DNA from: Liolophura sinensis
Lineage: Eukaryota > Mollusca > Polyplacophora > Chitonida > Chitonidae
NCBI RefSeq assembly: GCF_032854445.1
Contig: NC_088302.1
Location: 17,789,338-17,853,337 of the forward strand
Direction: 5' to 3'
Length of the DNA stretch: 64,000 nucleotides
Positions within the stretch are counted from its first letter, which is position 1. Each line of letters opens with the position of its first letter. Positions 75-43,800 of this stretch are shown in pieces. Position numbers and translations under genes: made by a program. The notes under the pieces were generated by a model that saw only the letters and a program-made list of their open reading frames with translations, was not told the origin of the DNA and searched no databases.

Positions 75-3000
75 CTGTCAATCAAACAATCAAAGAAAAG
101 GAACATTACAAGCATCAGTGAAAACTGATGTACACAGCTTATTTTGCTTCTTAATTGTTTTCTAACCCGAAAATTCATTGATTTATTTAAATTTTCACAT
201 CCATATGGGCTGGTATCCTTGTGAAATGTTAAACAAGGCCAAATTCACTCTAGATGTGACAGCCCATGTTGCCTTGCAGTCAGGTCCCTTGCTGCATGAA
301 TGGCCTGTATCAAAAGATAGGATATTAAAAATCTGACTGATCAACCAAGAGTCAGGACAACAAATACACCTGCTTGTCGCAGTTAAAATCTGTCAATTAC
401 CTGCTCTACCACAGCTTCGTCCTTTGGATTATCTCCGCTCTGCTGTTGACTGGAGGTTATCTTCTGATGTGACTTTTCCAATGTAATCTTTTGATAACCT
501 CTTTGTACAGCCTCACTTGAACCTCCTTCTACAGCCTCATGTGAACCCTCTTCTACAACCTCATGTGAACCTTCTTCCACAGATTCATGTGGGCCCCCTT
601 CCAAATCCTCGTGTGAACCCACTGGTCTTTCTTCAGCTATGTGTAAGCCTCCTTTCACACTGTAATCCGTGGCTTTGATGCCTTTCTCAACCTTCTGTGA
701 CACAGCCTGCCTCTTTGGTTTTGGAGGTTTGTCCTGACTTCTTGGTGTAAACGAAAATGGGTCATCCTCCTCATCCTCTGTGCTGTAGGAGTAGTAACAG
801 AATGGTAAGAACTACAAGTCAGAAATCAATTTGATGCATTTATTTTGCAGCATCAGACAAGATCTCCCATTTCCACTGATAAGCAAGTTGTATATCAGTT
901 GGACGTGTATATTCCCGTATCCTGCAGCTGATGCCTTATGTGTTGACTAGGTTATCTCCCTTGGCCTGGGTGTGAAGACAGTGATACACCAGCCATCTTT
1001 GCTGAATAGGTCTTTTGCTAACAAAAAAGTAATCACCTGCTTACTCAGTGATGCTGCACCCAATATAAACATTCCTAACACCATTTATTTCTGTATTCGG
1101 TCAGCGAGTATTAGCAGTACACAGCTCTGCTCGTTGTGCCCAGTCTGACCAGACTGGAGATTGGAAACAAGGATCTCTGGATTTCCAGTCTTCGTTCTAC
1201 CACTGGACTAAAAGGAAAATTCCTCCAGCAAAGGGGTCGAAAGTGCTTCTTGCCAGCACCCTGCTATATCATACTGTTATCATACTGTTATATGATATAT
1301 ATATATCATATGATAGCAAAGTTTTCTTATCTGACAAGATTTCTAAATAATTAATTTATTTTATTTATTTATTTGATTGGCGTTTTACTCCGTACTCAAA
1401 AATATTTCAATTAATTATTCAATTAAGAGACCAACATTATGGTGGGACGAAACCGTGCAGGACCCAGGGGAAACCCACGACCAACCGCAGTATTCATTCA
1501 TTTGATTCATACTCAAGAATATTTCACATCCATATACATCACAGCAGTCGTTTCCTATTCATGACTCAATGACACAGTTTTTCACCTTCAGAATGAGTTC
1601 AAGGTGTAGGCCACAGTGGTGGAACACAGGCCAACTCATATTTCCTGTAACACCTCATATTTAAAGTGGCTCTATTACCGTTGTTACACTAATTCTTCAA
1701 CCTTTTTGCATATGAAAGACCAATTTTCAGTGCAATTTATGCATTATTTTAATTTAATTTTGGAGACAAAACTACATTGGTTGGGTTGGCCATTATCAGG
1801 GCTTCACACAGAATAATGTCTTCAGAATTTGCTTGAATAAACACCTTGCAAACAATGCAAAAAGGTTGAAGGATTACTGTAACTTACTGTCAAAAGAGCC
1901 CTAAGAACAGTTGTCAGAGAATCTCAAAAATTCCTTTAGGATGGAATAGAGGAGTTTCAAATACTGTTAACGGTAAAAAAATTCTAACTGTACCATGTGG
2001 CTTGCCTGAAATGTAAGGCATTTATTACACTTATTATACTGGTTACATGGGTAGCTGGAAAAAGTTTTACACAAACTCATTTAGAGTAGATGAATGATGG
2101 AGAAAATTGAGAAGCGGAGTATAAGTGAACTTGAAGAAAACAGGTGTCACTTGTGCCTCCGAACACAGTGATATTGGAGATCACTAAATTAATGTCACCA
2201 ATAGCACCACTCATTTGATGTAGAATGATTTTATATTCCTTAAGAGACAAAAGAGTTTGGACTCAAAACACCCTATTGAAGCAACATCCCTTGAAAAACA
2301 TGTATCATAACCATACACCTGCAACTCATCTGTGATAAACAATGGAAGATCATTGTCTTTTGTGGTATCTTTCATGATTTTTCCGTTAGTATCACAATTA
2401 TTATAATGCTCACTGGTCTTTGTACAGTGGCCTTTTTCGACTCTTGTGAGGGGAAACTCCCTTCCTGAAAAGGCTCTCTTCTTCAGGTTTCAAAGAGGTC
2501 TCCGGCAGATGTACAACAGGTCCTGTTAGTAGAAACAAAAAAATATAATTGAAAATCTACTTTCGCATTAAACACTAATCAAAGAAATAAATAAAGATGT
2601 CAACTAAGGAAGGGACCTCAAAAAAGAAGTTTATCTTACCATAAAAACAATTTTTATCCTCAGTTAACTGTACATAAAAGCTGCATTTCACACAATACAA
2701 GACTAAGGTATCATTGCAGTATCTCATCCTACATCAAGCTTGCATAAGGCAAGTTTTCATGCCAATAAATTTATTTTGATTCACACACCATAGAATTCAC
2801 AAATTGTGTTTTAAGCTGTTCTAGATCTTTACTATCATATAGAATTCAGAGAGAAAGTGTTATGTGCATATTCCAGGCCATAATGTTTCATCAATCAAAT
2901 GTAGAATTATGAAACTTAAATTTAAAAGCATAAATTTGCATGTCCACAGTGATAGTAGGATCAGTCCCATCTTAGGACAGCAGAGAATAGAAATGGTTAG

Positions 3001-9000: not shown

Positions 9001-12000
9001 TCAATCTTTACGCTCTATGGTGGACTTTCTGAACTTTTGTGAGACTTTTTTGCCATAAATATGTCCTCCATGGATCAAGAATAATGACAGTAAATTTGAA
9101 ATTCAGTCTAGTACACAAATAATTTTAAAGCACTTAATGTCGTATTTAAAAAAAAAAAAAAAAAAAGAAAAAACCAAATTGAAGACGTTTTCAAATACAG
9201 ATTTCGTATCAGTTTAATGATGCTTTAAACTTTGTTCTCATATAAGAAATTCTTTTTCATTAAGTTAAATTAAATTAATTCAACAGATTTATACATTTTT
9301 GATGGCATACCAGCTTAAAACTGGAATGTTCTGAAGATGGGATAAAAGTTTCACATCTGTTCACAGACCCTTTCATGTAGTAAGTCCAATACAGGTCAGT
9401 GATTGGCCCCGTACGCACAGAATTAACCTCCATTTACTATAGATCATTTACAAATAACCTTAGACAAAATATGAGGGCACTAAAAAGGTCATCTTAAAAG
9501 GATTATCCAGAACGAGAACTGTTCAATGAAAACAAACCAGGAGCAGAAGTTAACTCACTTTAATACTTTCCCTGCTGTTTCCAGTAGATTTATTCTCAGA
9601 CTCCACAGACTGTTTCCCTGATCTAGAACTACTACCCGATCCAGAGGTACTACCCTATTAAAAAACAAGACAAAGGAATTATACTTCTCACGCATAAAAT
9701 CAGGATTGTGTTTTGAATCTCCAAAAATGTTTATCACATGCCAGACATGGTAAATAGCACATTTTTTCTGAGTTGTGCTGGTTTCAGGAAAGTGTTTTGT
9801 AATATGTCTGGGATGTCACACGATATCGTACTTGGAAAACGTTTATTTCAGTATCAACATTAATATTTTATGAGATTTATTTGCCTCTAAAACTGCACTT
9901 TGTAAGAAGAAATGTTAGGTCATTTTCCATAAATGTGATGAAATATCAAGTAACGAAACTTTAACTGTGCAAGTGAGTTATCACCAATGAATCAGAACAC
10001 ATATTAGTGATTTTATCCATTTTAAACAACCAATCAACCAAATCTTGCTTTTCTTTTAAAACATGAATAAAGATTTTATAAGTCATAACAGTGCGTTGAG
10101 TGGGTATTTATTCACCTTTTCAGAGAACATATTACACTAGACCAGCCACGGATAAGCCAGACTAATACAGCACATAAATATTTTAAAACTCAAAATATAT
10201 TTTAACTGGTCTGCAAACTTACACCCACTGCAGGCTTATGTTTGGTGTCAGGATCCAAGGTAGATAACTCTTCAGGTCTGTAGCTTCCAGGCTCATCTTC
10301 ACTGGAATCTAAAATATTAAAATATTTATTTATTTACTTGATTGGTGTTTTACGCCATGCTCAAGAGTATTTTACTTATACGATGACGGCCAGCATTATG
10401 GTGGGAGGAAACCCAGGAACCAGGTTGCTGGCAGACCTTCCCACATACGGCCCGAGAGAAAGCCAGTATTGGCTGGACCGGAACTCACAGCGAACGCATT
10501 GGTGCAAGGCTCCAGGGTTATTGTGGCCTGCTGTTATGCTAGCCCCCTCAACCACAGAGGCACCCTAAAATGTTAAAATAGCTCGTCACTGAAAGAAAAT
10601 TACAGTACTGGCATACCTTCTTTGGGGGATGGAAGAAAAAAATCAATGTAAGAAAAGTCATTTCAGTTCATTAGATGACAGTAGTATATGCACCATACTC
10701 TAAATGCTAGAATACTGATAATGCTAACGATACCAGTCATAACAAACACTCTGTTTTCATTATTTTCATCACCTTTATCTGAGACTTGGGCTGTAGGAGA
10801 GCTGGGGATGATGACGGGAATAGAGCCATAGGCTTCCACGGATGGAGGAATATCTTCTAAAGAATCACTGAAAAGAACAACACCAATAGCCTTGCTTGTG
10901 TAAGGAAGCGGTGGGAAAATGTTTCAATCAAAGAAAGAATGATCACACAATCCACATATGTACATTAATGCATATTTTTTCAATATCTACCATCCAGCAA
11001 GAGTAGTAAAAACAAACATCGTCTGACAGCAACCTGCGGATGGTCTCGGGTTTCCGCCGGATTTTGCCCAGTTTCCTCCCATCATAATGTTGTCCGCCAT
11101 CGTATAAGTGAAATATTCTTGAGTACGGCGTAAAACACCAATCAAATAAATAAAAATAAACATCTGTACGATACAAATTACCATCTTTTTACAAGATTAG
11201 CATTCTTCAAGTGAGGCATTCTGCTTGATTCTTACTGATTCGTTCATTTTAATGGAGCCACTCAAGGGGTTTTTGTCCAGTTCGATTAATTTCTCAATAG
11301 AAAAACTTCCATGTTGGTATCAAGAGTGGCATTTTACTTGCTTCTTAAAGGGTATTTTTACATACCAAACTTCAGGTTTTAAACTGGAACATTAGCATGC
11401 AATACTGTAACATTATCACGCAATATTGTAATATTATCACACAATACCGGAACATTATCACACAATACTGTAACATTATCACACAATACTGGAACATTAT
11501 CACGCAAAACTGGAACATTATCACGCAATACTGTAACATTATCACACAATACTGGAACATTATCACGCAATACTGTAACATTATCACGCAATACTGTAAC
11601 ATTATCACACAATACTGGAACATTATCACGCAATACTGTAACATTATCACACAATACTGTAACATTATCTTGCAATACTGGAACATTATCATGCAATACT
11701 GGAAAATTATCATGCAATACTGGAACATTATCACGCAACACTGTAGAGATTTTCTAGCACTGTCAACCATAACCACGTCAGACGTGAGATATGAGATGTA
11801 ATCACAGGCAATTAAGCACAGAGGGTTATTCAAGTAACCTTTAATGTGGTGATGTCAGAAAATTCTGATTGACATATGTTTTGTCCAGATGTAGTATGCG
11901 ATTTTGTGAGACTAAAGAAAATAATCAGTGAAGTTCAAGCTTTCCTCATTTGTCACAGGTAGAAGTCCCGAAAGTCATCAGATGTTCCACTCCTTGTTTG

Positions 12001-15000
12001 ACTACGCTTACTTATCAAGGGTCTCTCATACTATAGCCCGAGACCTTCAGTGCCTGAGACCAGCAGTGAACCGACGTTCTGAGGGTGTAAGCACACCTGG
12101 CTTGTCTACACTTACTTATCCAGGGTCTCTGGTACTAAAGCCTGTGACACCTGCAGTGAGCTGATATGTTCTGAGGATGTGAGTACACCTGGTTTGTCTA
12201 CACTTACTTATCAAGGGTCTCTGGTACTAAAGCCTGTGACACCTGCAGTGAGCTGATATGTTTTGAGGGTGTGAGCACACCTGGCTTGTCTACACTTACT
12301 TATCAAGAGTCTCTGGTACTACAGCCTATGACACCTGCAGTAAACTGACATTCTGAGGGTGTGAGCACACCTGGCTTGTTTACACTTACTTATCCAGGGT
12401 CTCTGGTACTAAAGCCTGTGACACCAGCAGTAAACTGACATTCTGAGGGTGTGAGCACACCTGGTTTGTCTACACTTACTTATCAAGGGTCTCTGGTACT
12501 AAAGCCTGTGACACCTGCAGTGAGCTGATATGTTCTGAGGGTGTGAGCACACCTGGTTTGTCTACACTTACTTATCAAGGGTCTCTGGTACTAAAGCCTG
12601 TGACACCAGCAGTAAACTGACGTTCTGAGGGTGTGAGCACACCTGGCTTGTCTACACTTACTTATCAAGGGTCTCTGGTACTAAAGCCTGTGACACCTGC
12701 AGTGAGCTGATATGTTCTGAGGGTGTGAGCACACCCTGTTTGTCATCATCGTCATCATCATCTGACTCTGGAAAACAAGCAGATTTTCTTTTTTGCTCTT
12801 TATGTAATGAAGTGCTAAACCAGTCCCCAACTGAAACTGGGTAGAAATACTACAACAATATAATGGAAATTCTATGAAACAAAATCTCTGACAGTTTATG
12901 TATACTTTTCCTGGTGTGATGTGATACTATTTCTTATACAACGCTGAATCAAGCAGATGTGACATTAGGCATGCCAATAAGGGAATGATGTCAAGAGCGT
13001 TTGAAAGTACAATATGGTGAAAGTTGTGGCTAAATTTGAGCGATGGGTCACATCATGTATTCATGCGCGTCAACACACCAGCAGCAAAAGTGCAAGGCAC
13101 AGAAAATTTTTTGTTTATTATCCTCTGAAACGTCCAATAATATGCTTAATACACTGTAATTTTTCTACGATTGAAGAAAGCATTCAGACAATACAATGGC
13201 ACCCGCAAAGCTCAAAATCCGTTACTTTATGTGATTGGATATTTCACCGTACACACTTATAGGAATATTTCACTTATATGACGACAGCCAGCATTATCAT
13301 GAAAGGAAACTGGGCAGAGCGCTGGGGAAACCCACAAGCATCCACAGGTTGTTGGCAGACCTTCGCACATACAGGTATGATCAGAGAGGAAGCAAGAAGG
13401 AGTTGGACGAATTCATAGCAACCACATTGCTAAGAGGCTCCTGTGTCAATGTGCTGTGCTAGCACGCTAACCACTTGGACACGGAGGCTCCCAGTGTAGC
13501 TCTTTAAGCCAAGTTTCAGCAGCAACTATTGACTCTAGAGGTCACAATTCATGTAAGCATCAGTCCTGTAAATTGGGACTGAAATATGACATAATAGAGC
13601 CAATCAGGTTAAAATGGTCTATTCACCACTCCTTGCCACTGTTAGGAGAGCAATAATGGTGACCTCATCTTTTCAGCACATCCTCTTCATTTATGGGAAT
13701 AAACTGCTTTCTTCACAGACAGAGAGTTTCAATTTTCACACACCCTTATTGTCAGTGACTAAGTTTTGAGTCTATGAATATTTCAGTCAAGATATTTACC
13801 ACCAGAGATAAATCAACTACCCAAATTCTTAAGCCTTTTCAACCAACTCTGTGACCAATGTGTTGAAACACTCTGAGAGAACTATGGTATGTAGAGAAAT
13901 AATTTGCACAGGTTTGTCAAGTCTATATTTTAAGTGACACAAACAAATCATTTTTACTGTCATTTTCACAATAATTATATGCATAAATTCCACTTTAAAA
14001 AGTGCTTTAATGGTTGAAAAAGTTCAAGGTTTACTGTACTTCAAAAAGATTTATAATACCGAAATATGGCCTGCTGATATCCCTTACCTTGAGCTGCAAA
14101 GAGGTCTTTAGGAGAATGCATTTTTCTGGTGTCATCCTGTGCTCTCACTGCTGGGGATCCTTGACCTCTGGACTTGCTGGTAAGGTGTGCCCCCTGGGTA
14201 TGGGAGAGCTCCCATTCAATACCGCTCCCTAACAGGTACTTACCCGATGATCTGCCACTAGAGAAATGCAGAGAACAATCGTTAAATTTTCACCAGTTGT
14301 TCTGCGGATTTCATTTCCAAAAGGTTAACTGACAAATGATTTGGATCACTGCTTGTGCAACAACCATCTTTTTAGGACAATTGTCGTAGTGTTGGCATGC
14401 AGCACATGTTTCTTTGAAGAGAATCAATCTCCAGTTTTGATTTCAAATGACAAGTCAAGAGCCAGATTTGAACTCTCACCTGCTGTCTTGATCCCCTTGA
14501 AGTGTTTTTTCTCCTTCAGAGACATCAACTACAAGCGGTGCTTTAATCGTCTTGTCTGGATCATCTGTAAAACAAGCATTAATTTAATGTTTAAAATTAA
14601 TTTAAGGAGAACGTTTCACTATAGAATGGCAGTCAGGTTAATGGGCTGAGGAAAACAGAGCCTGAAGTAAACAACCAGCCTTTCCCTTGAACCTGACAAA
14701 CTTCTAGACTAAAACGCTAAGCTGAACTGACAGTAAGTGGAACTCTGCCTCTGCCTTGGTGAAGGACTGAGGGGTGAATCGGCTGATCAATACTTAACTC
14801 CAATCAGCCAGCCAAGGCTACCAATTAAATCTAATATTGCAAACTGACAAAATACTGCCAATTCACCAATATTGAGATTATCGGAAAAATAAAACAAATC
14901 AAACATTTAATGGCAAAATGTAAGTACATTGTACATGTGTTATGACCTTTAGTTGCCTCTAAAAGGGCACTCTTTGGGGTGAACTATTAGGTCAGTTATC

Positions 15001-17220
15001 CATACATGTATGCCCAAACATACCTGTGCATGTATTTGGAAACATGTGAAATTACACCTTTGACAGTTAATTTTTTTTTTTTACTTAATTCAGTCAAAAT
15101 GTAGCAACTTCATTATACCTGAGGAACCATCAAGGGGTGCTTCAGGCATGGATCTCCCAGCAGCAGTATCACTGATCACACCCCCATCTGTGTCGCTAGG
15201 GAAGACAGGAAAGATAACATCACATTCCGTGTCAAGCAATCATTGTGTGACACTTTGAAAGATTAACAAGAGAGCTTTAAGGGCACTTGTGTTTTTGTCT
15301 CAAGATAAAACTTCTGAAGAGATTTTTGTTTGTTCTTCAACTACTTTCAATCTGATTCATTGACTGATTTATTTATACACTGGTGTTTTATGCCGTACTG
15401 AACATTTCCCTTATACCACGATGGCCAGCATTATGGTGGAAGCAAACCTGGCAGAGCTGTCAGGGAAACCCACGTCCATCTGCAGGTTGCTGGAAGACTC
15501 TGATTTAATGATGATGAGCCTTCATTTCAATACACATGAAGACATGGAACATTTTTTTTTTTTTTGTTAGTGATAAATTTTACCTTGTGTCCTTAATTTG
15601 GAAATGACAGGTATCAACGAAAGATTTAAATCTCAATCAAAGCAAACCCTACCTGAGTTTGACTGAGTCGGCTTGTAGTTTGAAAAACTTTGCAATACCT
15701 TTGTGTTTCTGTCTCTGCCACTATGATGGGCGGTCTCTGTGAAGGCTGGATCTTGCTGGGCTCTGCCTCACTGCCAGTGTCTGTGACATGAGTGATGGCT
15801 ATTCTGGCTGGAGGACTCTCTTCATCTGACAAGTTTTCATCTGCGCCTTCAAGCGAAACAAAATTTAGTCAGTTCTGACATATAAAATATCAGTAAAGAG
15901 AGAGTAATCTGTCAGAAATTATTGCTCTTACATTACAGATCCCCTCGTGTATATATCCAATATTGAATAACAGGAAGTTCCTTGATCAGTGGATCACTGT
16001 TTTAACCCATTTGAACAGAAAGCGAAAACATGTTTCACAGGAATTTGACTATCAGTTGAATACTTCTATCTGCACTCCGCTTGAGAATTTTAAATATCAG
16101 AGAGTACTGACCTGTTTTTTGTCGGTCTTCAGACATGCTTACATCAGACACAGACACACCAACCTGTTAAGAAAATATTACCTGTATGTAAGTCTAAAGC
16201 ATTGAAAGTAACTTACATGTAATTATAATACAATAATTTAATAAAATAAGAATAAGGTCTCTAGCAGGAAATTCGGAATATAAAATACAAGTAATGATAG
16301 TCTTGAGAGTCTTGAGCAATTTCAAATATCCACCAGTTTTCCAATACTGCATCATGACAAAAATATTTTCTTACACTCACTGTGTCAATTTTAAAACTGT
16401 TTAACATCATTAAAGAAACACACATTTGCATGATGACAACCAGGTTTATGGTAGAGGAAAAGGTGTGCCTATAGTAAAGCAGTACAATTCACCATGAAAT
16501 TGACAATCTTTTGGATCTGAAGCCAAGAGCCTCTCACTAATGCAACTGCAGGGAGTTCAAGTTCAGTTCACGCTGGCTCTCACCCTGATTGTATGTGGGA
16601 AGGTCTCCTAGCAACTTATCGGAGTTCTTGAGTTTCCTCTCCTCTCCCCACCATAATGCTGGCTGCCGTCATATGGGTGAAACATTCATATGTACAGGGT
16701 AAAACACCAATCACATAAATAAACAGATTTTTCATTATAACATCATTGGTATTTAGCTACACCAAGGATAACCTGAATAAGATGAATTCAAGCTTGGATC
16801 CTCATTGGTCCTGAGCTGATAGCAGCTGTGCTAGGCTAGAAAATGACATTTCATAAATGAGAAAGGAAATCCTGCCATATGGGCTCTGAAGTTTTGTGTA
16901 TAAAAAGACAATCTCAAAGGGATGTCGCCACTTGTTTGACTATCTGTACTGCTGGCGAAAACTGTTAATGGAACATTGTCTTTAAGTTATAACACCTGCA
17001 TGATCTAGGTGTATGTGTGTGAATTGTGGTGAATTATTCATGCAACATGACACTGGGCATACTCACATTTTCAATGTGTAGGCCAGGCAGGGTAGAAAGC
17101 AGAGTTCTCTCCCCTGGCGCTGGGAATGGGGATTCCTCCTGGGAGTCTAGCACAACAAACTTACAGCTGTCTGCTTGTGACACATCAGACCCATTAGAGT
17201 CCATCCTCTGCCACGACTCA
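1..17220 (-). CDS. TP53BP1: TP53BP1 (53BP1) homologue, N-terminal half, 20 exons, partial at left edge
   Basis: Known role: 53BP1 is a nuclear chromatin-bound adaptor at DNA double-strand breaks. Its unstructured N-terminal half carries ATM sites that recruit RIF1 and PTIP. The Tudor and BRCT domains, expected later in the protein, are off the left edge. Seen: coding exons (high to low) 17204-17067, 16163-16112, 15846-15699, 15195-15119, 14564-14480, 14257-14088, 12767-12662, 10867-10773, 10308-10223, 9654-9559, 8840-8700, 8156-8022, 7647-7605, 7013-6954, 6657-6535, 3541-3397, 3112-3024, 2522-2414, 782-401 and 74 to beyond 1. All have AG acceptors and GT donors, and every phase joins without a stop, giving about 784 residues rich in S, T, P, D and E. 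The family call rests on the start (MDSNGSDVSQAD... VVLDSQEES), the block IPVIIPSSPT at about 276-284 (human IVPSSPT) and DPFSFTP at about 640-646 (human PFHFTLP). Exon joining is inferred and a small exon may be missing. Confidence 0.87.
401..782 (-). CDS. TP53BP1: 53BP1 coding exon 19, with internal 8-residue repeats
   Basis: The largest exon here (382 bases), residues 634-760. It opens with EDEEDDPFSFTPRSQDKPP, which parallels ETPFHFTLPKEGD of vertebrate 53BP1. Residues 688-727 are five diverged 8-residue repeats of the form GSHE-x-V-E-x. Acceptor CTCCTACAG, donor GAGCAG|GTAATT. Enters phase 2, leaves phase 0. Confidence 0.85.
500..619 (-). repeat. 24-bp coding repeat, 5 copies, in 53BP1 exon 19
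   Basis: Five in-frame 24-base units encode GSHEDLEG, GPHESVEE, GSHEVVEE, GSHEAVEG and GSSEAVQR. Diverged but without a frame break, so the expansion is probably tolerated in a disordered acidic region. Confidence 0.85.
1355..1492 (-). mobile_element. SINE family 1, partial
   Basis: TTATTTATTTGATTGGCGTT tail, then CAACATTATGGTGGGACGAA and ACGACCAACCGCAG. The head is missing. Confidence 0.7.
1683..1883 (+). mobile_element. MITE family A, copy 1 (best TIRs)
   Basis: A 201-bp element bounded by 29-bp inverted repeats: left begins GTTACACTAATTCTTCAACC, right is its complement ending GGTTGAAGGATTACTGTAAC, with about two mismatches. The core contains TTTTGGAGACAAAACTACAT and CTTCAGAATTTGCTTGAATA. 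Confidence 0.75.
2414..2522 (-). CDS. TP53BP1: 53BP1 coding exon 18
   Basis: A 109-base exon for residues 598-632, with a basic stretch near the end (SPHKSRKRPLYKD) that could act as a nuclear-localisation signal. Acceptor TACTAACAG, donor ACCA|GTGAGC just before an in-frame TGA. Enters phase 1, leaves phase 2. Confidence 0.78.
3024..3112 (-). CDS. TP53BP1: 53BP1 coding exon 17
   Basis: An 89-base exon for residues 568-596, AASVLKPPLSLGMIDDPEEE then DSLQSFRLT. Acceptor CGATACAG, donor ACCA|GTAAGC. Enters phase 2, leaves phase 1. Confidence 0.8.
3397..3541 (-). CDS. TP53BP1: 53BP1 coding exon 16
   Basis: A 145-base exon for residues 520-566, with VNLDVLSPKSPVFSTPEEK (three S/T-P sites). Acceptor TGCATGTAG, donor AAAG|GTACAT. 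Enters phase 1, leaves phase 2. A second frame is also open here, but only this one joins exons 15 and 17. Confidence 0.8.
3542..6534. other. 53BP1 intron 15 (3.0 kb)
   Basis: Holds the transposase-like relic above and no recognised exon. Splicing exon 15 straight to exon 16 keeps frame (phase 1), so no missing exon is required. Confidence 0.7.
4080..4500 (-). pseudogene. possible decayed ZNF862-like transposase piece
   Basis: In shifting minus frames one can read KECGTRWTRHI and then LKFVLVLHMYILLSVILPN. These resemble the GTRW...h and F--FLHFL-DVL segments of hAT/ZNF862-like proteins. Stops and frameshifts are frequent. Lies in the long 53BP1 intron 15. A further open stretch at 5,051-5,344 was not recognised. 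Confidence 0.28.
6535..6657 (-). CDS. TP53BP1: 53BP1 coding exon 15
   Basis: A 123-base symmetric (phase 1-1) exon for residues 479-518, basic and serine-rich (KDAKPGDKTEGQKSGSSTK and on). Acceptor TTTCTACCTAG, donor TCTG|GTAAGT. The 3.0 kb intron after it is the longest in this part of the gene and holds transposase-like relic sequence. Confidence 0.8.
6954..7013 (-). CDS. TP53BP1: 53BP1 coding exon 14, LRLSPSQ motif
   Basis: A 60-base symmetric (phase 1-1) exon for residues 459-477, YLDSQHIALRLSPSQPDST, with an SQ site. It resembles the vertebrate 53BP1 motif GVLELSQSQDVEEN. Acceptor TTTGTTTCCAG, donor ACAG|GTAAGG. Confidence 0.84.
7605..7647 (-). CDS. TP53BP1: 53BP1 coding exon 13
   Basis: A 43-base exon for residues 444-457 (GKFPEEDKNLDDEH). 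Acceptor ACATTTGTAG, donor CATG|GTGAGT. Enters phase 0, leaves phase 1. Accepted because it is needed to link the phases of exons 12 and 14. Confidence 0.75.
8022..8156 (-). CDS. TP53BP1: 53BP1 coding exon 12, with NAGNAG acceptor
   Basis: A 135-base phase 0-0 exon for residues 399-443. It contains SFALRLSHSEED, which repeats in exon 14 as HIALRLSPSQPD and resembles the vertebrate GVLELSQSQ. The acceptor reads CACAGCAG, so splicing could start at 8156 or 8153 and add or drop one Gln. Donor CAG|GTAAAT. Confidence 0.83.
8229..8297 (+). repeat. tRNA-like relic (SINE head)
   Basis: TAGTCCAGTGGTAGAAGCAT resembles a D arm/A box and CACTGGTTCAAACCCC a B box. Stems do not pair well, so it is not called a gene. 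The same AGTCCAGTGGTAGAA block occurs inverted at about 1,138-1,216. Confidence 0.4.
8700..8840 (-). CDS. TP53BP1: 53BP1 coding exon 11
   Basis: A 141-base phase 0-0 exon for residues 352-398, from AWQPATLLSDIG to GRKFDIDIEASE. Acceptor TTTCTTCAG, donor GAG|GTACAG. Open and in frame with both neighbours. Confidence 0.82.
9559..9654 (-). CDS. TP53BP1: 53BP1 coding exon 10
   Basis: A 96-base phase 0-0 exon for residues 320-351, very rich in serine and glycine (GSTSGSGSSSRSGKQS). Acceptor TTTTTTAATAG, donor AAA|GTGAGT. Being symmetric it could be skipped without a frameshift. Confidence 0.8.
10223..10308 (-). CDS. TP53BP1: 53BP1 coding exon 9
   Basis: An 86-base exon for residues 292-319 (SSEDEPGSYRPEELSTLD then PDTKHKPAVG). 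Acceptor AATATTTTAG. The donor GGT|GTAAGT is preferred to the overlapping GG|GTGTAA because the next exon needs phase 0. A full SINE sits just upstream of its acceptor. Confidence 0.82.
10321..10566 (-). mobile_element. SINE family 1, near full length
   Basis: Tail TATTTATTTACTTGATTGGT and GTTTTACGCCATGCTC at the left, and CCTCAACCACAGAGGCACCC (complement of the tRNA-like head) at the right. Lacks about 30 bases of the body between GGAAACC and AGGTTGCTGG. Lies just upstream of the 53BP1 exon 9 acceptor. Confidence 0.8.
10773..10867 (-). CDS. TP53BP1: 53BP1 coding exon 8, conserved IPVIIPSSP block
   Basis: Residues 260-290. It contains SVEAYGSIPVIIPSSPT, the best match in the window to vertebrate 53BP1 (DAFRSTPFIVPSSPT). 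Acceptor TTCTTTTCAG, donor AAAG|GTGATG. Enters phase 2, leaves phase 1. The conserved SSPT is probably a phospho or docking motif; that is inference. Confidence 0.9.
11028..11161 (+). mobile_element. SINE family 1, 5'-truncated
   Basis: CAACCTGCGGATGGTCTCGG to GGCGTAAAACACCAATCAAA and a TAAATAAAAATAAA tail. Half-length copy in 53BP1 intron 7, close to the 21-bp array. Confidence 0.78.
11397..11757. repeat. 21-bp minisatellite, about 16-17 copies
   Basis: Unit near AATACTGTAACATTATCACAC. Because 21 is a multiple of 3 and the unit lacks stops in several frames, long open frames appear on both strands (QYCNIIT on plus; LQYCVIM and NVTVLCD on minus). It lies inside 53BP1 intron 7, so these frames are not genes. 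Confidence 0.93.
12000..12740 (-). repeat. 90-92 bp tandem array of the exon 7 end plus its splice donor, 8 copies
   Basis: Using the shared CTTACTTA (complement of the donor TAAGTAAG) as anchor, units begin at 12007, 12111, 12203, 12295, 12385, 12475, 12567 and 12657. Spacings are 104, 92, 92, 90, 90, 92 and 90. Copy 8 is the real 3' end of exon 7. Copies 2, 3 and 6 keep its 92-bp form and reading frame. Copies 4, 5 and 7 are a 90-bp form with a 2-base loss that shifts the frame. Every copy keeps GTAAGT. Confidence 0.92.
12662..12767 (-). CDS. TP53BP1: 53BP1 coding exon 7, whose 3' end is copy 8 of a tandem array
   Basis: A 106-base exon for residues 225-258. It opens with an acidic run (ESDDDDDDDKQ), then GVLTPSEHISSLQVSQALV, like the vertebrate segment with LASTP...LLQLSGQRSLV just before the IVPSSP block. 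The acceptor is GTTTTCCAG. The donor used must be GATAA|GTAAGT at 12661, because reading on meets TAA at once. The phase-2 exit fits the next exon exactly. About 74 bases of its 3' part, with the donor, recur seven more times in the following intron. Confidence 0.82.
13245..13492 (-). mobile_element. SINE family 1
   Basis: AATATTTCACTTATATGACG, CAGAGCGCTGGGGAAACCCA and TAGCACGCTAACCACTTGGA (head complement) in the right order. The A/T tail is missing. Confidence 0.75.
13828..14038 (+). mobile_element. MITE family B, copy 1
   Basis: AAGCCTTTTCAACCAACTCT at the left and GGTTGAAAAAGTTCAAGG at the right are inverted ends. The inside shares GAAACACTCTGAGAGAACTA and the GTAGAGAAATA...TTGCACAG blocks with the copy at 42.9 kb. 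Confidence 0.68.
14088..14257 (-). CDS. TP53BP1: 53BP1 coding exon 6
   Basis: A 170-base exon for residues 168-223, ending in KMHSPKDLFAAQ. That tail resembles the SP-dEDLF-type motif of 53BP1 proteins. Acceptor TTTCTCTAG, donor CAAG|GTAAGG. A GTAAGT within the exon near 14242-14237 could be an alternative donor; using it would give a 15-base exon. Confidence 0.78.
14480..14564 (-). CDS. TP53BP1: 53BP1 coding exon 5
   Basis: An 85-base exon for residues 140-166, including KAPLVVDVSEGEKTLQGDQD. Acceptor TGTTTTACAG, donor GCAG|GTGAGA. Enters phase 1, leaves phase 2, fitting both neighbours. Confidence 0.8.
15119..15195 (-). CDS. TP53BP1: 53BP1 coding exon 4
   Basis: A 77-base exon for residues 114-138 (about SDTDGGVISDTAAGRSMPEA and on), between acceptor TTCCCTAG and donor TCAG|GTATAA. 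Enters phase 2, leaves phase 1. No domain, consistent with the disordered N-terminal half. Confidence 0.78.
15366..15500 (-). mobile_element. SINE family 1, partial
   Basis: TGGTGTTTTATGCCGTACTG, GCCAGCATTATGGTGGAAGC and CATCTGCAGGTTGCTGG. The tail half only. Confidence 0.7.
15699..15846 (-). CDS. TP53BP1: 53BP1 coding exon 3
   Basis: Residues 65-112. It has an acidic start (ADENLSDEESPPARIAI) and ends in VAETETQ, whose TQ is a possible PIKK site. The acceptor is CGCTTGAAG, with a weak pyrimidine tract. The donor is AAAG|GTATTG. Enters phase 1, leaves phase 2. Confidence 0.8.
16112..16163 (-). CDS. TP53BP1: 53BP1 coding exon 2
   Basis: A 52-base exon for residues 47-63 (VGVSVSDVSMSEDRQKT) plus the first base of codon 64. 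The acceptor is TTCTTAACAG and the donor ACAG|GTCAGT. Enters phase 0, leaves phase 1. Placed by splice sites and frame continuity only, since the sequence is acidic and serine-rich and too short to recognise. Confidence 0.75.
16514..16726 (+). mobile_element. SINE family 1, 5'-truncated
   Basis: AGCCTCTCACTAATGCAACT, CCACCATAATGCTGGCTGCC and GGTAAAACACCAATCACATA. Plus orientation, in 53BP1 intron 1. Confidence 0.72.
17067..17220 (-). CDS. TP53BP1: 53BP1 coding exon 1 (start codon at 17204-17202)
   Basis: Residues 1-46. The ATG at 17204 follows a likely acceptor (TTTGGCAG) ending at 17221, so 17205-17220 would be the end of the 5'UTR and the upstream leader is probably spliced. The donor is AAT|GTGAGT, phase 0. 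SQ pairs at residues 9-10 and 21-22 match the ATM-type sites at the start of vertebrate 53BP1. LLSTLPGLHIEN parallels the vertebrate MLSRHLPNLQ segment. Confidence 0.85.
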
Positions 17221-37317: not shown

Positions 37318-37889
37318 TTACAAATTGCCCTCGTCCATCATTTTATGCATATCTAAAACTATACGGTCCATGGCCTCTCTATGCACACTGTCTTGGGAGA
37401 ATAAGGCTTCCAGAAAGTCTGGCGTGGCAAAGAAATTAAAGAGCAGGTCAATGCGTCCCTTTGATTTTTCCGTGAGATGGCGTGTTATAAGATTCTGGAT
37501 CAGGATACGGCACTCTTCAATAGACTTGCGTAAAAAGTTTTTGTCAAAGGTGAACTCGACTTCGTGGAAGCTTATTATGCTTAAGGCCAACGAATGGAAC
37601 TTCTGCTTGAAGGACTCAGCTATGGAGAGCTCTTCCGAATTGAACTGGTCATTGCGGTATAGAATCCCTATTTTCACCACTGTCTTAATAAGGTACTTGA
37701 GCATTTTCTCCGCTTCCTTCTTCGTGGGGAGGTAATCCTTGAGAATCTTGTACATGTTATCTAGCAGGTGCCCAGTGGTGTCATCTATAAACACCTTTGC
37801 AATCTTCTTGCTGGACATTTTCCCCAGGAGTTTCTTCTGTGCACGCAGTCCCAGCCCCCGGGAGTCAAACCCTGACCCTGCCTCTGCCA
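37318..37889 (-). CDS. TNFAIP8-like coding exon 2, whole TIPE2-homology domain
   Basis: Residues 20-208 and stop TAA (37320-37318). Acceptor GTCGTTGCAG just above 37889. The frame stays open across the acceptor to an ATG at 37905, so an unspliced or internally started transcript would add MFVVAV instead of the acidic leader. The whole domain is one exon, as in vertebrate family members. Confidence 0.93.
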
Positions 37890-40800
37890 CTGCAACGACA
37901 AACATTTGTTTTATATTAATATTAATAAACCATTAATCACACAAAAATCAAAATACTAATAATAATTACATGCACCTAAAGATCTTAACTTTCATGGGTT
38001 TTACAGGCTCAAACTTCACAATTTTCAAGCTGTATGCACTTGGTATAATACTTTCACGCACACAAAGCCTAAAGAGTCTAAAGGCCTTCCAAGTCCTACA
38101 AGTACAAAATCCCCTGGAGAATTACTTTCAAATTTCAGGATTTTCACAGTTTTTAAGGCTCAATTTGAATCCTCTTCATTAACAAACCTTTTGCTCTCAA
38201 AAATGTATTTTAGAAAGAACTACACTACCCTAATTCCTCAAATGAAAAGAGCCATTTTTAGTGCCATTTATGAACATTTTTAATATGATTTTGGAGACCA
38301 AACTACACTGGTTGAGTTGGCCAACTGCAAGGCTTCGCAAAAATCTTGTCAGACTACGGAGGATAATGCCTTCAGAATATGCTTGAATAAACACCTAGCA
38401 AAACATGCAAAATGGTTGAAGAATTACAATGGTTGATCCCTTTTTTTTTTTTTTTCCAGGCAAATCTTGACAGACATGAAAGCACAATCACACAGTAAAA
38501 GAAATTTTATGGGTTCACAGAAAACCTGTACATTTTCATACCATGCTTTAACTTGCCCCAAATAGACTTGAGAACCTCTGAACATCGCAATATAACCATA
38601 GCATTCAAGTAGGTAAGACTAAGCCATGTTAGATATGACACACATCTTGGTGAACATCCTTAAATCAAAGATTATATGCACAGACAGATGAATTGCACAC
38701 ATGTACAGTACATGTCATTTATATGCTGCATGTATTTAAGTATTGCCGAAACTTAATCTTGGAGCTAAAATATTGTGTTTCGAAAGATCACCAACTGCCG
38801 AATGCATGCATATTAAATTTTGTAAATGAATCCTCGACATCAAATTCTGCACACAGAAGGATACTGTATACAGTGATGTTGGCACAACACGTTTACTTTG
38901 TAAACAACTGCTTTTAAGTGTGAAACATTGGCTCAAAATTATCTCAGAAGACAACAAGTACATAAAAATTACATATAGGATATTACATGACGACTGCATG
39001 ACGTACATGTATGACGAAATTAACGAGGGCATCCAATGTACAACATTTGCTAAATGACTTTGGCCTAGGTTATTCCTGGCAAGCTCAGGCAGTAGGAAAT
39101 AAGGGACAGATTTCCTTTCGTTAATTAAACAACTTCTAAATGACTACACTGTTCAAAACTTGGATTCCCGACTACGACAAAAACAAATCCTGCAGATGTC
39201 CAGTAATGAACTACAATCATACTTAGGAATGATTACAGTAAAATAGTTCCAACAGACAGTAACAAAACTACAAGCTTCCTAATGGAAGTGGGCAGATGAC
39301 TCTATGGAGACTTCTGTTAGTGAAAGAGTCTGTACATTTACATGCACTTATTGTAATGTTGTTAAGAATAAGTATCATTTCCTTCTGGTCTGCTCACTGC
39401 ATAGCAGCTAGAGAAAAAAGTATATGAAGACATACTTCTATAGAACCTAATTGGGAGAAATTCAACTGGCCTTTGTTTTCACCGTACAAAAGCCGTCAAT
39501 GGTTGTAGCCAAACCATTTATAGGCAAGAATGATATGATGTTTTGTCTGATTTTCCCCACCACCCAGGTATATGTATAGTGTCACCTGTTTCCCATGCAT
39601 TGTACATTTATTCGGGACTGTATGCTCATGGGCCAATTGGCCCAATTACATGAAGACATTTACAACAATGATACATTTATATATATATATATATATATAT
39701 ATAGTCCCAAGTGGGTATCCAAAATTTTCCCTGAGCAACATAACTGTAATATGGACTTTCATTTAATCGGAAGGCAGCCTATTTTTTAATCCTGTGAGTT
39801 GGCGCTAATGTGAAGCAGGACATTGAGCCATTGTTATGTCTAAAATGGATTGCAGCACAATGTCTGCAATGTGTAAACAATGCATCAGCTAACAGGGTAA
39901 TATTGTGTTGCCTTTAATGTGACATCATGATGAGCTGGAAAAGGAACATTGGACGTCAATGGGAGATTTGCGTACTTCGTATATGAGCACACACACACAA
40001 TTAATTGTGACATAATAAAAAAAAAGAACATAAGTTAAAGGCTTTGAACTGTTTGTTACAGATGCGAATGAGTTTTACAATTTCCCCATTAAATGACGTC
40101 AAGGTCTTGCTGCCGGGTGTTTGACAGGTCCCGATTAGCTCATTATTTATTTATTTGATGAGAGTTTTACACCATACTCAACAATATCTGACTTACGACA
40201 GTGGCCAGTGCAGTAAGGCTGTAGTTAAGATTTGGCTTCCCGCCTTTTTGGTAACACTGATGTGTTAGGTTTAAAGACTTTGGGGAAGAAGCTCATCACT
40301 AGTGATTCATATTAGCACAGCTTGAAATGTTTTTTTCCACCTGGGAGCCATTGGCCCCTAGACATAAATATTTTAGGGGCCAAATAATTTTTTCAGGGGC
40401 CATCTATACATACAGATTTGTTTTCAGCAATCAAGGAAAATGTTACAGTCCTTGTACATTTCTGCTATGTAGTGAACATATGTTTTGAACTACTGGTTGT
40501 TGCAGTAGTGCTTTGTGAGCAATTCACAACCAAAGTTTGAAACTTGTAATTCACAGAGATTTTCATTAGCAGTAAACGACCTGTCATTCTTGGCAACATA
40601 GAACGCAGTTCGGAATTCATGGATATTTCACCATGGATATTTCTGCACTGTTCATTTTTTGTAGGCCTTGTAAAATTGATGTATCTGAAGACTTCCCTGC
40701 TTATTCAGCCTTGGAAGCTAACAAAGAGGCGTTGTGCATTTCTGATGCCTCATGATTTGTCACAGCATCTAACTTTAAAGTGTTCGTTCCAGCCACAAAA

Positions 40801-43800
40801 CCTGAATTTTTTTTTGAGTCAAATATTTTGCGCAAGTCACATGTCATGAGATTTGTATCGTGGTCAAACTTCAGCCATGGCCTATTAACGCTCCATGCTT
40901 GGCGAAAAGTTCTTTTTGTGATTTTGTTCTGGGTCCCGTCCTCAGAAACATTGATAACTGAAACTCTTTTAGGGCAAGGACCTTTGTTTTCCTCCCTTGC
41001 GCCCACTTTCCATCGCGGGGAAGTTGATGATTAGCAACAAAAAAATGCTATAGCTGTCAAAACAAAATTCAGAGAACACCGCCACATGGCCTACCGAAAA
41101 TTGCAGCCAGGATGAGGTGTTACTGTAGAAACAAACAGAATGACCTACAAATGCATGTGCTGAAAGCCTGGTCTCCTGTGTTAGGGATATTTCCTGTAAG
41201 TAACGTGCATACACTGTGACCAACACAAGACCGCATGCTAGGAGATTAGAATCTGCAATCTGCATTGTCAGAGTCTCATTTTGGATGGGTGACCATCGCT
41301 GGATTCAACTTTTCGAGCAGGCTACACTTAACGGATTCACTCACCATGTACAACAACTTAAATAGAGCTTAGGCGCTAATGGCGATCCACCACTAAATTT
41401 TCATTCGCCAAAACACTATTGTACTCGCAAGTGGCGAATTGGCGCTCGGTTTATTTCAAGCCATGATTAGATAGGGATATTGCATATGGATGTGTTCGCA
41501 TTAGCTTGTACTTTATCTTCATAGTTACTAGCTTGCAGGTGGAATAATATTTAAAAATTTACGTTTTTTGAATGTTCATTAACCATATTAAAACATTCAT
41601 TCAAACAAAATGGATAAAGGGTATGGCAAATCATTTTCGTCAAACCTTCAAAACTACACATTTATATAACACATATCTAAATAGTCATGCTTTCATAACA
41701 TTTGTATTTCATTAGAGCATCTGCTTTGTGGAACTAGATCTGGATTAGATTCTGGAGGATTTCTGCAGTGCGAGTCTACTGAAATTCATTGAGAATTATG
41801 ATAAAAAATTTAAAAAAAGAAGAAAATAAAGGCCTAAAAGCAAACCTCAAGCCCCAAACTTCAACCTGACATGCCAACACCCATCCACCACCAGCCAGCC
41901 TTAACCTGCAAATATTCCACCATCCAAAGTCTATTTTCCTATAAGGCACCGATAAGATAATTTCCGTGCAAAACCCTCTAACCTGAAGCTATTGGTAATC
42001 AAATTATCCATGCCTTTGATGTGTGTTAATAACTAGCTCCAGATTCCCCTGGAGAACAACCAGCAAAACAGTAATGAAATCTGGCTGGACACATCCGAAT
42101 ATGGGTTTCTGCTCAATTACTGGGTCTCCTAAAAGCATACATCTATAATTACATCATTTAATACAGTTGTTTATGGACAATTCTCCAGCACAGTTGAAAG
42201 AATTCTTCCCATTTTTTAGCACCTTTCACTAGTGGCTATTTATATAGGTCATCTGGCATTTCAACTCTTATCCTAAAAATCACCAAGCTACGTTATTAAT
42301 CTTGAATCTTTTCCTTTCAACGTGCTGCATACAGTGCCTTAAAGGGTTGTTACAAGGTACAGTATTGAAGACACCAGCTTGTGAAAGTCTCATCTCTATC
42401 CCAGACCATAAACCATGTGGGATTTCTCCAGTCACAAACTAAGTTAAAACATCATTGCTTGAATTGATCCTGAACATTACACCTGGGGCATTCTGATTAG
42501 CCACAGAGGTTAGCAAGGCCTTGCTATCTCCTTGGTGAAGTGTATGACTTCAAACTACCAACACATGAGGTGCAAGTTCAATCCCAATCTTGAAAAAGGG
42601 ACTTCATAGATTTTCCCATTATTATTGTTCAGGACATTTTGGTGACAATAAGCAGTCGAGGCAGTGTGCGTCTTACATTTGCCAAAGACCACTTATACGG
42701 CACTGAAGTCAGTATGTTTATAATACACATGAAAAAGTTTACTTGGTCAATCCTGTTTTCCTCCACCCACAAAATGAGCTGTATTCATGTAAGCAAAATG
42801 TTCTTGCGCATGGCATTAAACAACAATACAAACAAACAAATAAATATCTAGAAAGAAGCTATATTTATGTATCAAACATAGCCCAATTTTTCAACCTTCT
42901 TAACTGCTTATGCAACCAAAATTTTGAAACATTCTGAGAGAACTATGGGGTGTAGAGAAATAGCTTGCACAGTTTTAAGAAGCTCGCATCTTTAAGGACA
43001 CAAATCATGTTTAGTATGATTTCCATAATAACTGTATGCATAATTTCCACTGATTAAAGTGCTTTAGTGGTTGAAAAGGTTGAAGATTTACAGTAATCAA
43101 AACAATTATTACCACTGAAAAGCTTCCCGTATACATCATAACAGGAATTATACAACAACAAAAAAACAGCTCAGCCATTTCCATTGCTTGTGTGTACAGG
43201 TACATGTACATGAATGCCAACAAATCTTGAAACTTCCATGTCCTTCCTAATCTGCCGAACGCTATTATTTCTTTCCTTCCTTTGCCATAACATTTCTACA
43301 TATCTCTCTACACGTTTGACTTTCCATGCCAACACCTGCCAGCGAGCCATCAGGAGTTTTACTTCATCACCAGAGCATTTTTTAACAGTGCTCATTAATA
43401 GACACATGGTAAATAAATTACTGTGCTTTCATGTCAGGAGCTCCTGAATGAATATCAGTAATTATCCTGTCATGGTACGAACGACATAACCAGACTGACA
43501 AGACACTGGATGTGCACAGTGAAGGATCAATCTGAAAGGTTTCGGAATCTGGCTCTAGTCATGCAGAATCCGACACAATGCAGGCCAGAAAACCTGAACC
43601 TATCTCTACCATATACTCAGCTACTTTTGTGTTAGGCAGGCTTATCAGGTACCATCTGACTCCTCAGGCTTGGCCAATGGTGTACCGACAGGACACAGGA
43701 TCTTATCTTCCACATAAGAACCACAATTGTATGCTACTGTACTGGCAATACTGTTACAAGCACTTCTTCACTTCAACAACAGAATTAATACAGAGCTAGT

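What the first reader, a model, noticed from the sequence alone, without database searches (positions are those of the whole stretch)
12000..12767. Eight tandem copies of a coding-exon end with its 5' splice site
The last ~74 bases of 53BP1 exon 7 plus the GTAAGT donor are repeated eight times, so the pre-mRNA offers eight near-identical donors in a row. Only the first one met by transcription (copy 8, at 12661) gives an intact protein, because reading past it hits TAA at once. Copies 2, 3 and 6 keep the 92-bp, in-frame form; copies 4, 5 and 7 are a 90-bp, frame-shifted form. The duplicated peptide (VLTPSEHISSLQV and on) is a conserved 53BP1 segment. This could be a splice-donor buffer, a decoy array, a source of truncated isoforms, or neutral slippage.
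Basis: partly seen in the sequence, partly recalled or inferred. Interest (0 to 1): 0.8.

Follow-up and report, generated by a model that had tools for sequence, protein, structure and literature searches.

The report
Eight-copy splice-donor minisatellite in chiton 53BP1
In a chiton's DNA-repair gene 53BP1, the end of one exon with its splice site has been copied head to tail eight times; this is most likely an ordinary minisatellite that happened to catch a splice site, of a kind already known from two human genes.

Summary
The array is real. On the minus strand, 74 nt of exon end plus 18 nt of intron are repeated, giving eight donors from 12661 to 12011 (seven GTAAGT, one GTAAGC). The gene is 53BP1: Tudor- and BRCT-coding exons lie downstream. 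Assembly and scaffold sizes match the chiton Liolophura sinensis. The unit matched nowhere else in the assembly. Splicing from any later donor straight to the next exon gives ...VPETLDK-stop, so a spare donor cannot rescue the protein and the 'buffer' idea fails. The donors are not clearly better conserved than the rest of the unit. In 120 kb sampled elsewhere, 18 tandem arrays of 150 bp or more cover 22.5% of the sequence, so a donor caught in one is unremarkable. Best reading: a near-neutral minisatellite, founded by a tandem duplication across the exon/intron border and expanded by unequal exchange, with the first donor mostly used and leaky, unproductive splicing at the others. Human CBS (31 bp) and ABCA7 (25 bp) VNTRs are the same kind. 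No RNA or population data were available, so donor use is inferred.

The parts
12662..12767 (-). 53BP1 coding exon (106 nt) whose last 74 nt (12662-12735) is the parent of the repeat; copy 8, donor at 12661
   Evidence: acceptor TTTTCCAG before 12767, donor GTAAGT at 12661, frame fits both neighbours
12572..12661 (-). unit up to the copy 7 donor (90 nt, B type)
   Evidence: donor GTAAGT at 12571
12480..12571 (-). unit up to the copy 6 donor (92 nt, A type; 74-nt exon part identical to copy 8)
   Evidence: donor GTAAGT at 12479
12390..12479 (-). unit up to the copy 5 donor (90 nt, B type)
   Evidence: donor GTAAGT at 12389
12300..12389 (-). unit up to the copy 4 donor (90 nt, B type)
   Evidence: donor GTAAGT at 12299
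12208..12299 (-). unit up to the copy 3 donor (92 nt, A type)
   Evidence: donor GTAAGT at 12207
12116..12207 (-). unit up to the copy 2 donor (92 nt, A type)
   Evidence: donor GTAAGT at 12115
12012..12115 (-). unit up to the copy 1 donor (104 nt, divergent, B-like)
   Evidence: donor GTAAGC at 12011
11988..12011 (-). start of the native intron after the array; CAAACAAGGAGTG matches the exon's CAAACAGGGTGTG at 11 of 13 nt (candidate founding microhomology)
11383..11743 (.). second, different minisatellite in the same intron (21 bp x 17.2)
10773..10867 (-). next coding exon (acceptor TTCTTTTCAG before 10867; its donor end, AAG|GTGATG at 10772, is a candidate)
14088..14257 (-). candidate preceding coding exon (start 14257 or 14251, chosen by eye; donor AAG|GTAAGG at 14087 in matching phase)

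Best explanation
This is a minisatellite founded by a tandem duplication of about 92 bp whose ends lay in the 53BP1 exon and 18-20 nt inside the following intron, perhaps helped by a short exon/intron similarity (inferred). The second copy lost coding constraint and took a 2-nt deletion (B form). AB dimers and single units then multiplied by unequal exchange or slippage to eight copies (inferred from the order A B A B B A A B' and the 182-bp period). In RNA, the spliceosome most likely uses the first donor by exon definition, because it makes a 106-nt exon while the others make 196- to 756-nt exons (inferred). A few percent of transcripts probably leak to a later donor, carry the stop after ...VPETLDK and are degraded (inferred from ABCA7). 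The array itself has no selected function.
For: Array, A/B forms and dimer period. Exon/intron similarity at the junction, 11 of 13 nt; 1.3% of 5,000 random pairs of 24-nt window pieces score as high. Stop in 7 of 7 extended single-intron products. Donor 9-mer: 1 minority cell; 8 of 84 nine-column windows, the donor window among them, are as invariant, so no clear sign of selection on the donors (16 of 108 alignment columns with gaps in half or more of the copies were dropped). Array RNA no more structured than shuffles: z +1.94, 19 of 20 shuffles fold at least as well. Tandem arrays are dense: 18 arrays of >=150 bp (period >=10) covering 27,042 of 120,000 nt in 12 sampled 10-kb pieces; more lie in the same intron and in the 30 kb downstream (6 in L005-L007). 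One place in the genome. Precedent: in human ABCA7 the frameshifting isoform that, by the order of the text, uses the second donor of a donor VNTR was 2 +/- 1%.
Against: No RNA or population data. All seven GTAAGT donors pair equally with U1 (-7.5 kcal/mol; the GTAAGC donor -4.5) and are similarly accessible (74th-93rd percentile for the eight), so donor strength does not favour the first. From memory of in-vitro competition work, intron-proximal donors can win between equal sites, and SRSF1 is reported to activate intron-proximal donors. Donor VNTRs need not be harmless: longer ABCA7 alleles strongly raise skipping of the next exon. Copies 6 and 8 are identical over the 74-nt exon part, which could reflect recent conversion or maintenance. 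Array density is uneven: three satellites-like arrays make up about 19 of the 27 kb, and 5 of the 12 sampled pieces have no array of that size.
Confidence: 0.75

Rival explanations
1. Regulated unproductive splicing: the seven downstream donors form a poison extension of the exon, and the share of transcripts lost to nonsense-mediated decay sets 53BP1 dose, perhaps scaling with copy number.
For: All 7 downstream donors give the same early stop; the seven GTAAGT donors are equal in U1 pairing and all eight are accessible.
Against: No clear excess conservation of the donors (8 of 84 windows as invariant); in human ABCA7 second-donor use did not change with VNTR length, although skipping of the next exon did.
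Confidence: 0.1
2. U1-binding array: the extra donors recruit U1 without being spliced and protect the intron from premature polyadenylation or help define the exon.
For: Seven sites with U1 pairing of -7.5 kcal/mol within 546 nt; two ATTAAA hexamers lie downstream in the intron, at 11845 and 11253.
Against: 135 of 7,591 GT sites in the window, both strands and the array's own seven included, pair with U1 as well, so many minisatellites would carry such sites by chance; ATTAAA is a common hexamer.
Confidence: 0.04
3. Proto-microexons: a 45-nt piece of five units, or an 87-nt piece in three places, is sometimes spliced in between the first donor and the next exon, adding in-frame copies of ...VSQALVPETLD.
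For: 8 of 786 two-intron combinations are open in frame, all from the first donor.
Against: The acceptors (ending GTCAG, ATCAG or TAAG) have little or no pyrimidine tract just upstream; in four of the five 45-nt cases another AG lies 8-10 nt upstream; the open frame follows simply from copying an in-frame exon end.
Confidence: 0.04
4. Splice-donor buffer: spare donors rescue the protein if the first is mutated.
For: Eight GT donors.
Against: Every back-up donor, spliced straight to the next exon, includes the stop after LDK.
Confidence: 0.01
5. Assembly artefact.
For: Only 14x HiFi coverage.
Against: Copies differ from each other by substitutions and indels; the 0.75-kb array is far shorter than the 8.3-kb mean read.
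Confidence: 0.03

Closest known systems
Human CBS 31-bp VNTR, c.1444_1467+7(16_21)
   Same: By its name the tandem unit is the last bases of a coding exon plus the first 7 nt of its intron, so each unit carries the donor; units differ by single substitutions (name and table footnote seen in passages of PMC2630376).
   Different: 31-bp unit, 16-21 copies and polymorphic in people; here about 92 bp, eight copies in one assembly, with a 2-nt-shorter second form; different gene and phylum.
Human ABCA7 25-bp VNTR of intron 18
   Same: Tandem repeat whose first two bases are the exon's donor GT, so extra donors follow in a row; an out-of-frame isoform from the second donor was measured (2 +/- 1% by the order of the text), and transcripts with a premature stop rose under cycloheximide (PMC5954066, passages and one section).
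   Different: The unit is described as intronic and starts at the GT; about 12-427 copies; its disease link is skipping of the next exon.
[quoted passage not shown]
   Same: Tandem duplication across an exon/intron border that copies splicing signals (PMC4974935, abstract and one section; review PMC3443670, passages).
   Different: There the acceptor side is copied and a new intron is spliced; here the donor side is copied and no new intron is shown.
Internal tandem repeats at exon-intron boundaries in human segmental-duplication genes
   Same: Variable repeats at exon borders change gene structure (PMC2812944, passages).
   Different: Those cases are compared with transcripts and concern recent paralogs.

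Membership tests
Exon/intron-border VNTR carrying the 5' splice site (CBS/ABCA7 kind) | Head-to-tail array of a minisatellite-length unit | tested here: met
Exon/intron-border VNTR carrying the 5' splice site (CBS/ABCA7 kind) | Each unit contains the exon's native donor | tested here: met
   8 of 8 copies keep GTAAG; frame and phase of the parent exon fit both neighbours
Exon/intron-border VNTR carrying the 5' splice site (CBS/ABCA7 kind) | Copy number varies between individuals | not testable with these tools
   one assembly only; one place in G000
Exon/intron-border VNTR carrying the 5' splice site (CBS/ABCA7 kind) | Downstream donors used at a low level in RNA | not testable with these tools
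   no RNA data
Intron gain by tandem duplication | The duplication provides both splice sites of a new, spliced intron | tested here: inconclusive
   8 of 786 donor/AG/donor combinations are open in frame, with acceptors that look weak by eye; no RNA
53BP1 (TP53BP1) gene | Tandem Tudor and C-terminal BRCT coding exons in the same gene | tested here: met
   Peptides from L005 and L006: Tudor, 13 of 17 PDB sequences listed are 53BP1 and the other 4, weaker, are KDM4A/B; BRCT, 3 of 5 are 53BP1 and the other 2, weaker, are Rhp9. That these exons belong to the same gene as the array is inferred from order and strand, not from a transcript

The most novel reading that the evidence does not exclude
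The array is a copy-number-set rheostat for 53BP1: more donor copies send a larger share of transcripts into the same stop codon and decay (or into skipping of the next exon), so individuals or populations that differ in copy number differ in 53BP1 dose and in how they repair DNA breaks.
Probability: 0.07. Interest if true: 0.65.

Novelty: new member of a known kind. Interest (0 to 1): 0.33.

Why it matters
It is a natural test of how a cell picks one splice donor among eight: seven share the same GTAAGT core, and every single-intron choice but the first puts a stop into the protein. Public HiFi and five-tissue RNA-seq data for this species exist (accessions in PMC11068029), so the test is cheap. 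It also shows that donor-carrying minisatellites, known from human CBS and ABCA7, occur in a mollusc whose genome is rich in tandem arrays.

Tried and rejected
Dispersed element: rejected, the unit matches only this place in G000 (that search skips simple repeats and very common words). Strong RNA structure hiding the extra donors: not supported. Selection on the donors: tested, not shown. The Pfam search for the 53BP1 Tudor in G000 found nothing (0 of 1 genome; 0 of 14 control genomes rang, so it is uninformative); the Tudor was found instead by reading L005. Pfam on the 142-aa open frame at 383-811 found nothing. I first thought that nothing in the array could be spliced in frame; one search showed 8 of 786 combinations that can.

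Literature: eleven search calls, of which ten ran and one was rejected for its wording. Searches found no paper. Of the 12 papers that one search listed for 53BP1 and mollusc, none is about 53BP1 gene structure by title and start of abstract. Passages of PMC8724738, PMC12005716, PMC2576457 and PMC6692358 were looked at and not used as evidence. Two papers were not held, the second being the primary report on the CBS VNTR (Lievers 2001), which I saw only as a reference.

Rough expectation: 9 arrays with period >=40 and >=4 copies in 120 kb scale to about 46,000 in 609 Mb; with an assumed 200,000 donors (my assumption, from no call) a 92-nt unit placed at random would cover a donor in about 3% of cases, so of the order of 1,000 such arrays if selection removed none. 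The 12 sample places were round-number coordinates chosen by me on contigs C1-C12, not a random draw; one (L012) is wholly a 391-bp satellite and was kept in the count; L012 and one long array each in L018 and L020 make up about 19 of the 27 kb, and 5 of 12 pieces had no array of that size.
Full report
What is there. On the minus strand of the window, an exon runs from 12767 to 12662 and is followed by an array in which 74 nt of that exon's end plus 18 nt of intron are repeated. The eight donors lie at 12661, 12571, 12479, 12389, 12299, 12207, 12115 and 12011; seven read GTAAGT and the last GTAAGC, with spacing 90, 92, 90, 90, 92, 92 and 104. Two forms occur: an in-frame A form (copies 8, 6, 3, 2) and a 2-nt-shorter B form (copies 7, 5, 4), with a divergent B-like copy 1. 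Copies 8 and 6 are identical over the 74-nt exon part. A 182-nt dimer period is also found.

Where it is. The window lies in an assembly of 609,464,459 bases in 632 contigs. The published Liolophura japonica assembly has 609.5 Mb in 632 scaffolds and N50 37.34 Mb, and its table gives scaffolds of 25,057,479 and 19,479,325 bases (passages of PMC11068029); G000 has contigs of exactly those two lengths and one of 37,343,639 bases. A correction renames the species Liolophura sinensis (whole text of PMC12441733). The assembly used 14x HiFi reads of mean 8.3 kb, so single reads can span the 0.75-kb array. A search with two units matched only this place (4 matches, all inside the array or its parent exon).

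The gene. Reading the minus strand through the next 30 kb gave peptides that match 53BP1 Tudor chains (best E 1.3e-4; 13 of 17 sequences listed are 53BP1, the other 4 are KDM4A/B at E 0.0011-0.0098) and 53BP1 BRCT chains (best E 9.5e-13; 3 of 5 are 53BP1, the other 2 are Rhp9 at E 0.0014). The next exon after the array joins in frame and reads ...LDNDSLEDIPPSVEAYGSIPVIIPSSPTAQV. A candidate preceding exon ends at a donor at 14087 in the phase that the exon at 12767 needs. By comparison with the human sequence as I recall it, this is the N-terminal region around Ser366, a TOPBP1-binding site; the codon context of Ser366 was read from a mutagenesis primer in passages of PMC6561707. In that recalled alignment Ser366 falls in the next exon, so the repeated part is not the known binding site.

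What the extra donors would do. Joining each donor to the next exon gave an open product only for 12661; the other 7 ended in ...VPETLDK-stop. A back-up donor therefore cannot save the protein. Exon length would be 106 nt for the first donor and 196, 288, 378, 468, 560, 652 and 756 nt for the others. Allowing a second cryptic intron of at least 30 nt, 8 of 786 combinations stay open, all from the first donor, with acceptors that look poor by eye. All seven GTAAGT sites have the same computed U1 pairing, -7.5 kcal/mol, and the last has -4.5; 135 of 7,591 GT sites in the window, both strands and these seven included, pair as well as the seven. Accessibility of the eight donors is in the 74th-93rd percentile of 9-nt stretches of the exon-plus-intron segment. 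The array RNA is not more structured than shuffles (z +1.94; 19 of 20 shuffles fold at least as well). So little but position and exon length marks the first donor. Exon definition is the reason I expect it to win; this is inference.

Origin. The exon just upstream of the unit and the native intron just after the array share CAAACA.GG.GTG (11 of 13 nt); 1.3% of 5,000 random pairs of 24-nt pieces of the window score as high. This is modest support for a microhomology-guided tandem duplication. The order A B A B B A A B' and the dimer period suggest a two-copy stage followed by unequal exchange (inference). The 2-nt deletion in B shows that downstream copies are not held to the reading frame.

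Is it maintained? Over 92 alignment columns (16 of 108 dropped for gaps in half or more of the copies), 39 cells depart from the majority; the donor 9-mer has 1, and 8 of 84 nine-column windows, the donor's included, have as few. That is no clear evidence for selection on the donors. Tandem arrays are very common in this genome: in twelve 10-kb pieces, 18 arrays of at least 150 bp with period at least 10 cover 27,042 of 120,000 nt, and 9 have period at least 40 and at least 4 copies; three long arrays make up about 19 kb of this and 5 of the 12 pieces have none. The window has five arrays of that size, and the same intron carries a second one, 21 bp x 17. Under a rough scaling with an assumed 200,000 donors, of the order of 1,000 donor-spanning arrays would be expected if none were removed by selection.

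Known kind. Human CBS carries c.1444_1467+7(16_21), a 31-bp VNTR whose unit, by its name, is the last part of an exon plus 7 nt of intron (passages of PMC2630376). Human ABCA7 carries a 25-bp VNTR that starts with the donor GT of exon 18, has about 12 to 427 copies, and gives a one-unit retention isoform through a donor in the array (passages of PMC5954066). The two frameshifting isoforms there were 14 +/- 6% and 2 +/- 1%, the latter, by the order of the text, being the retention isoform; cycloheximide raised the transcripts with a premature stop; second-donor use did not change with VNTR length, but skipping of the next exon rose strongly with it (section read). That last result speaks against assuming that such an array is harmless. 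The chiton array meets the structural features of this kind; copy-number variation and RNA usage were not testable. Intron gain by tandem duplication (PMC4974935, abstract and one section; PMC3443670, passages) is related but yields a new spliced intron.

Verdict. A real, tidy example of a minisatellite that has caught a splice donor, in a genome full of minisatellites; most likely near-neutral, with the first donor doing the work. It is a new member of a known kind. Its value is as a cheap natural experiment in donor choice.

Noticed in passing
window 11383-11743: Second minisatellite (21 bp x 17.2) about 270 bp from the donor array, in the same intron.
   Followed up: partly
window 11021-11118 and 13263-13360 (also 10329-10412, 15381-15498): Several copies, in both orientations, of a dispersed repeat that looks like a molluscan SINE (label recalled) lie around the array.
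   Followed up: no
window 496-619: Tandem repeat (24 bp x 5.2) inside a 142-aa open frame on the minus strand (383-811), probably a 53BP1 exon.
   Followed up: no
window 37318-37932: Open frame on the minus strand with a full TNFAIP8 domain (Pfam E 4.2e-70).
   Followed up: no
window 43752-44612 and 55187-56059: Two further long minisatellites (84 bp x 10.4; 40 bp x 21.7).
   Followed up: no
L007 3101-3798: Another array with a 92-bp unit (x 7.6, 96% matches); its unit looks unrelated by eye and was not matched, so the shared period seems a coincidence.
   Followed up: partly
G000 contig C99: Mitochondrial COX1 matches seven times (one partial) about 15.5 kb apart on one contig, as if the circular genome was assembled as a concatemer; one more match is on C632.
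   Followed up: no
L012 4-10000: The sampled 10-kb piece is wholly a 391-bp satellite (25.8 copies, 95% matches).
   Followed up: no
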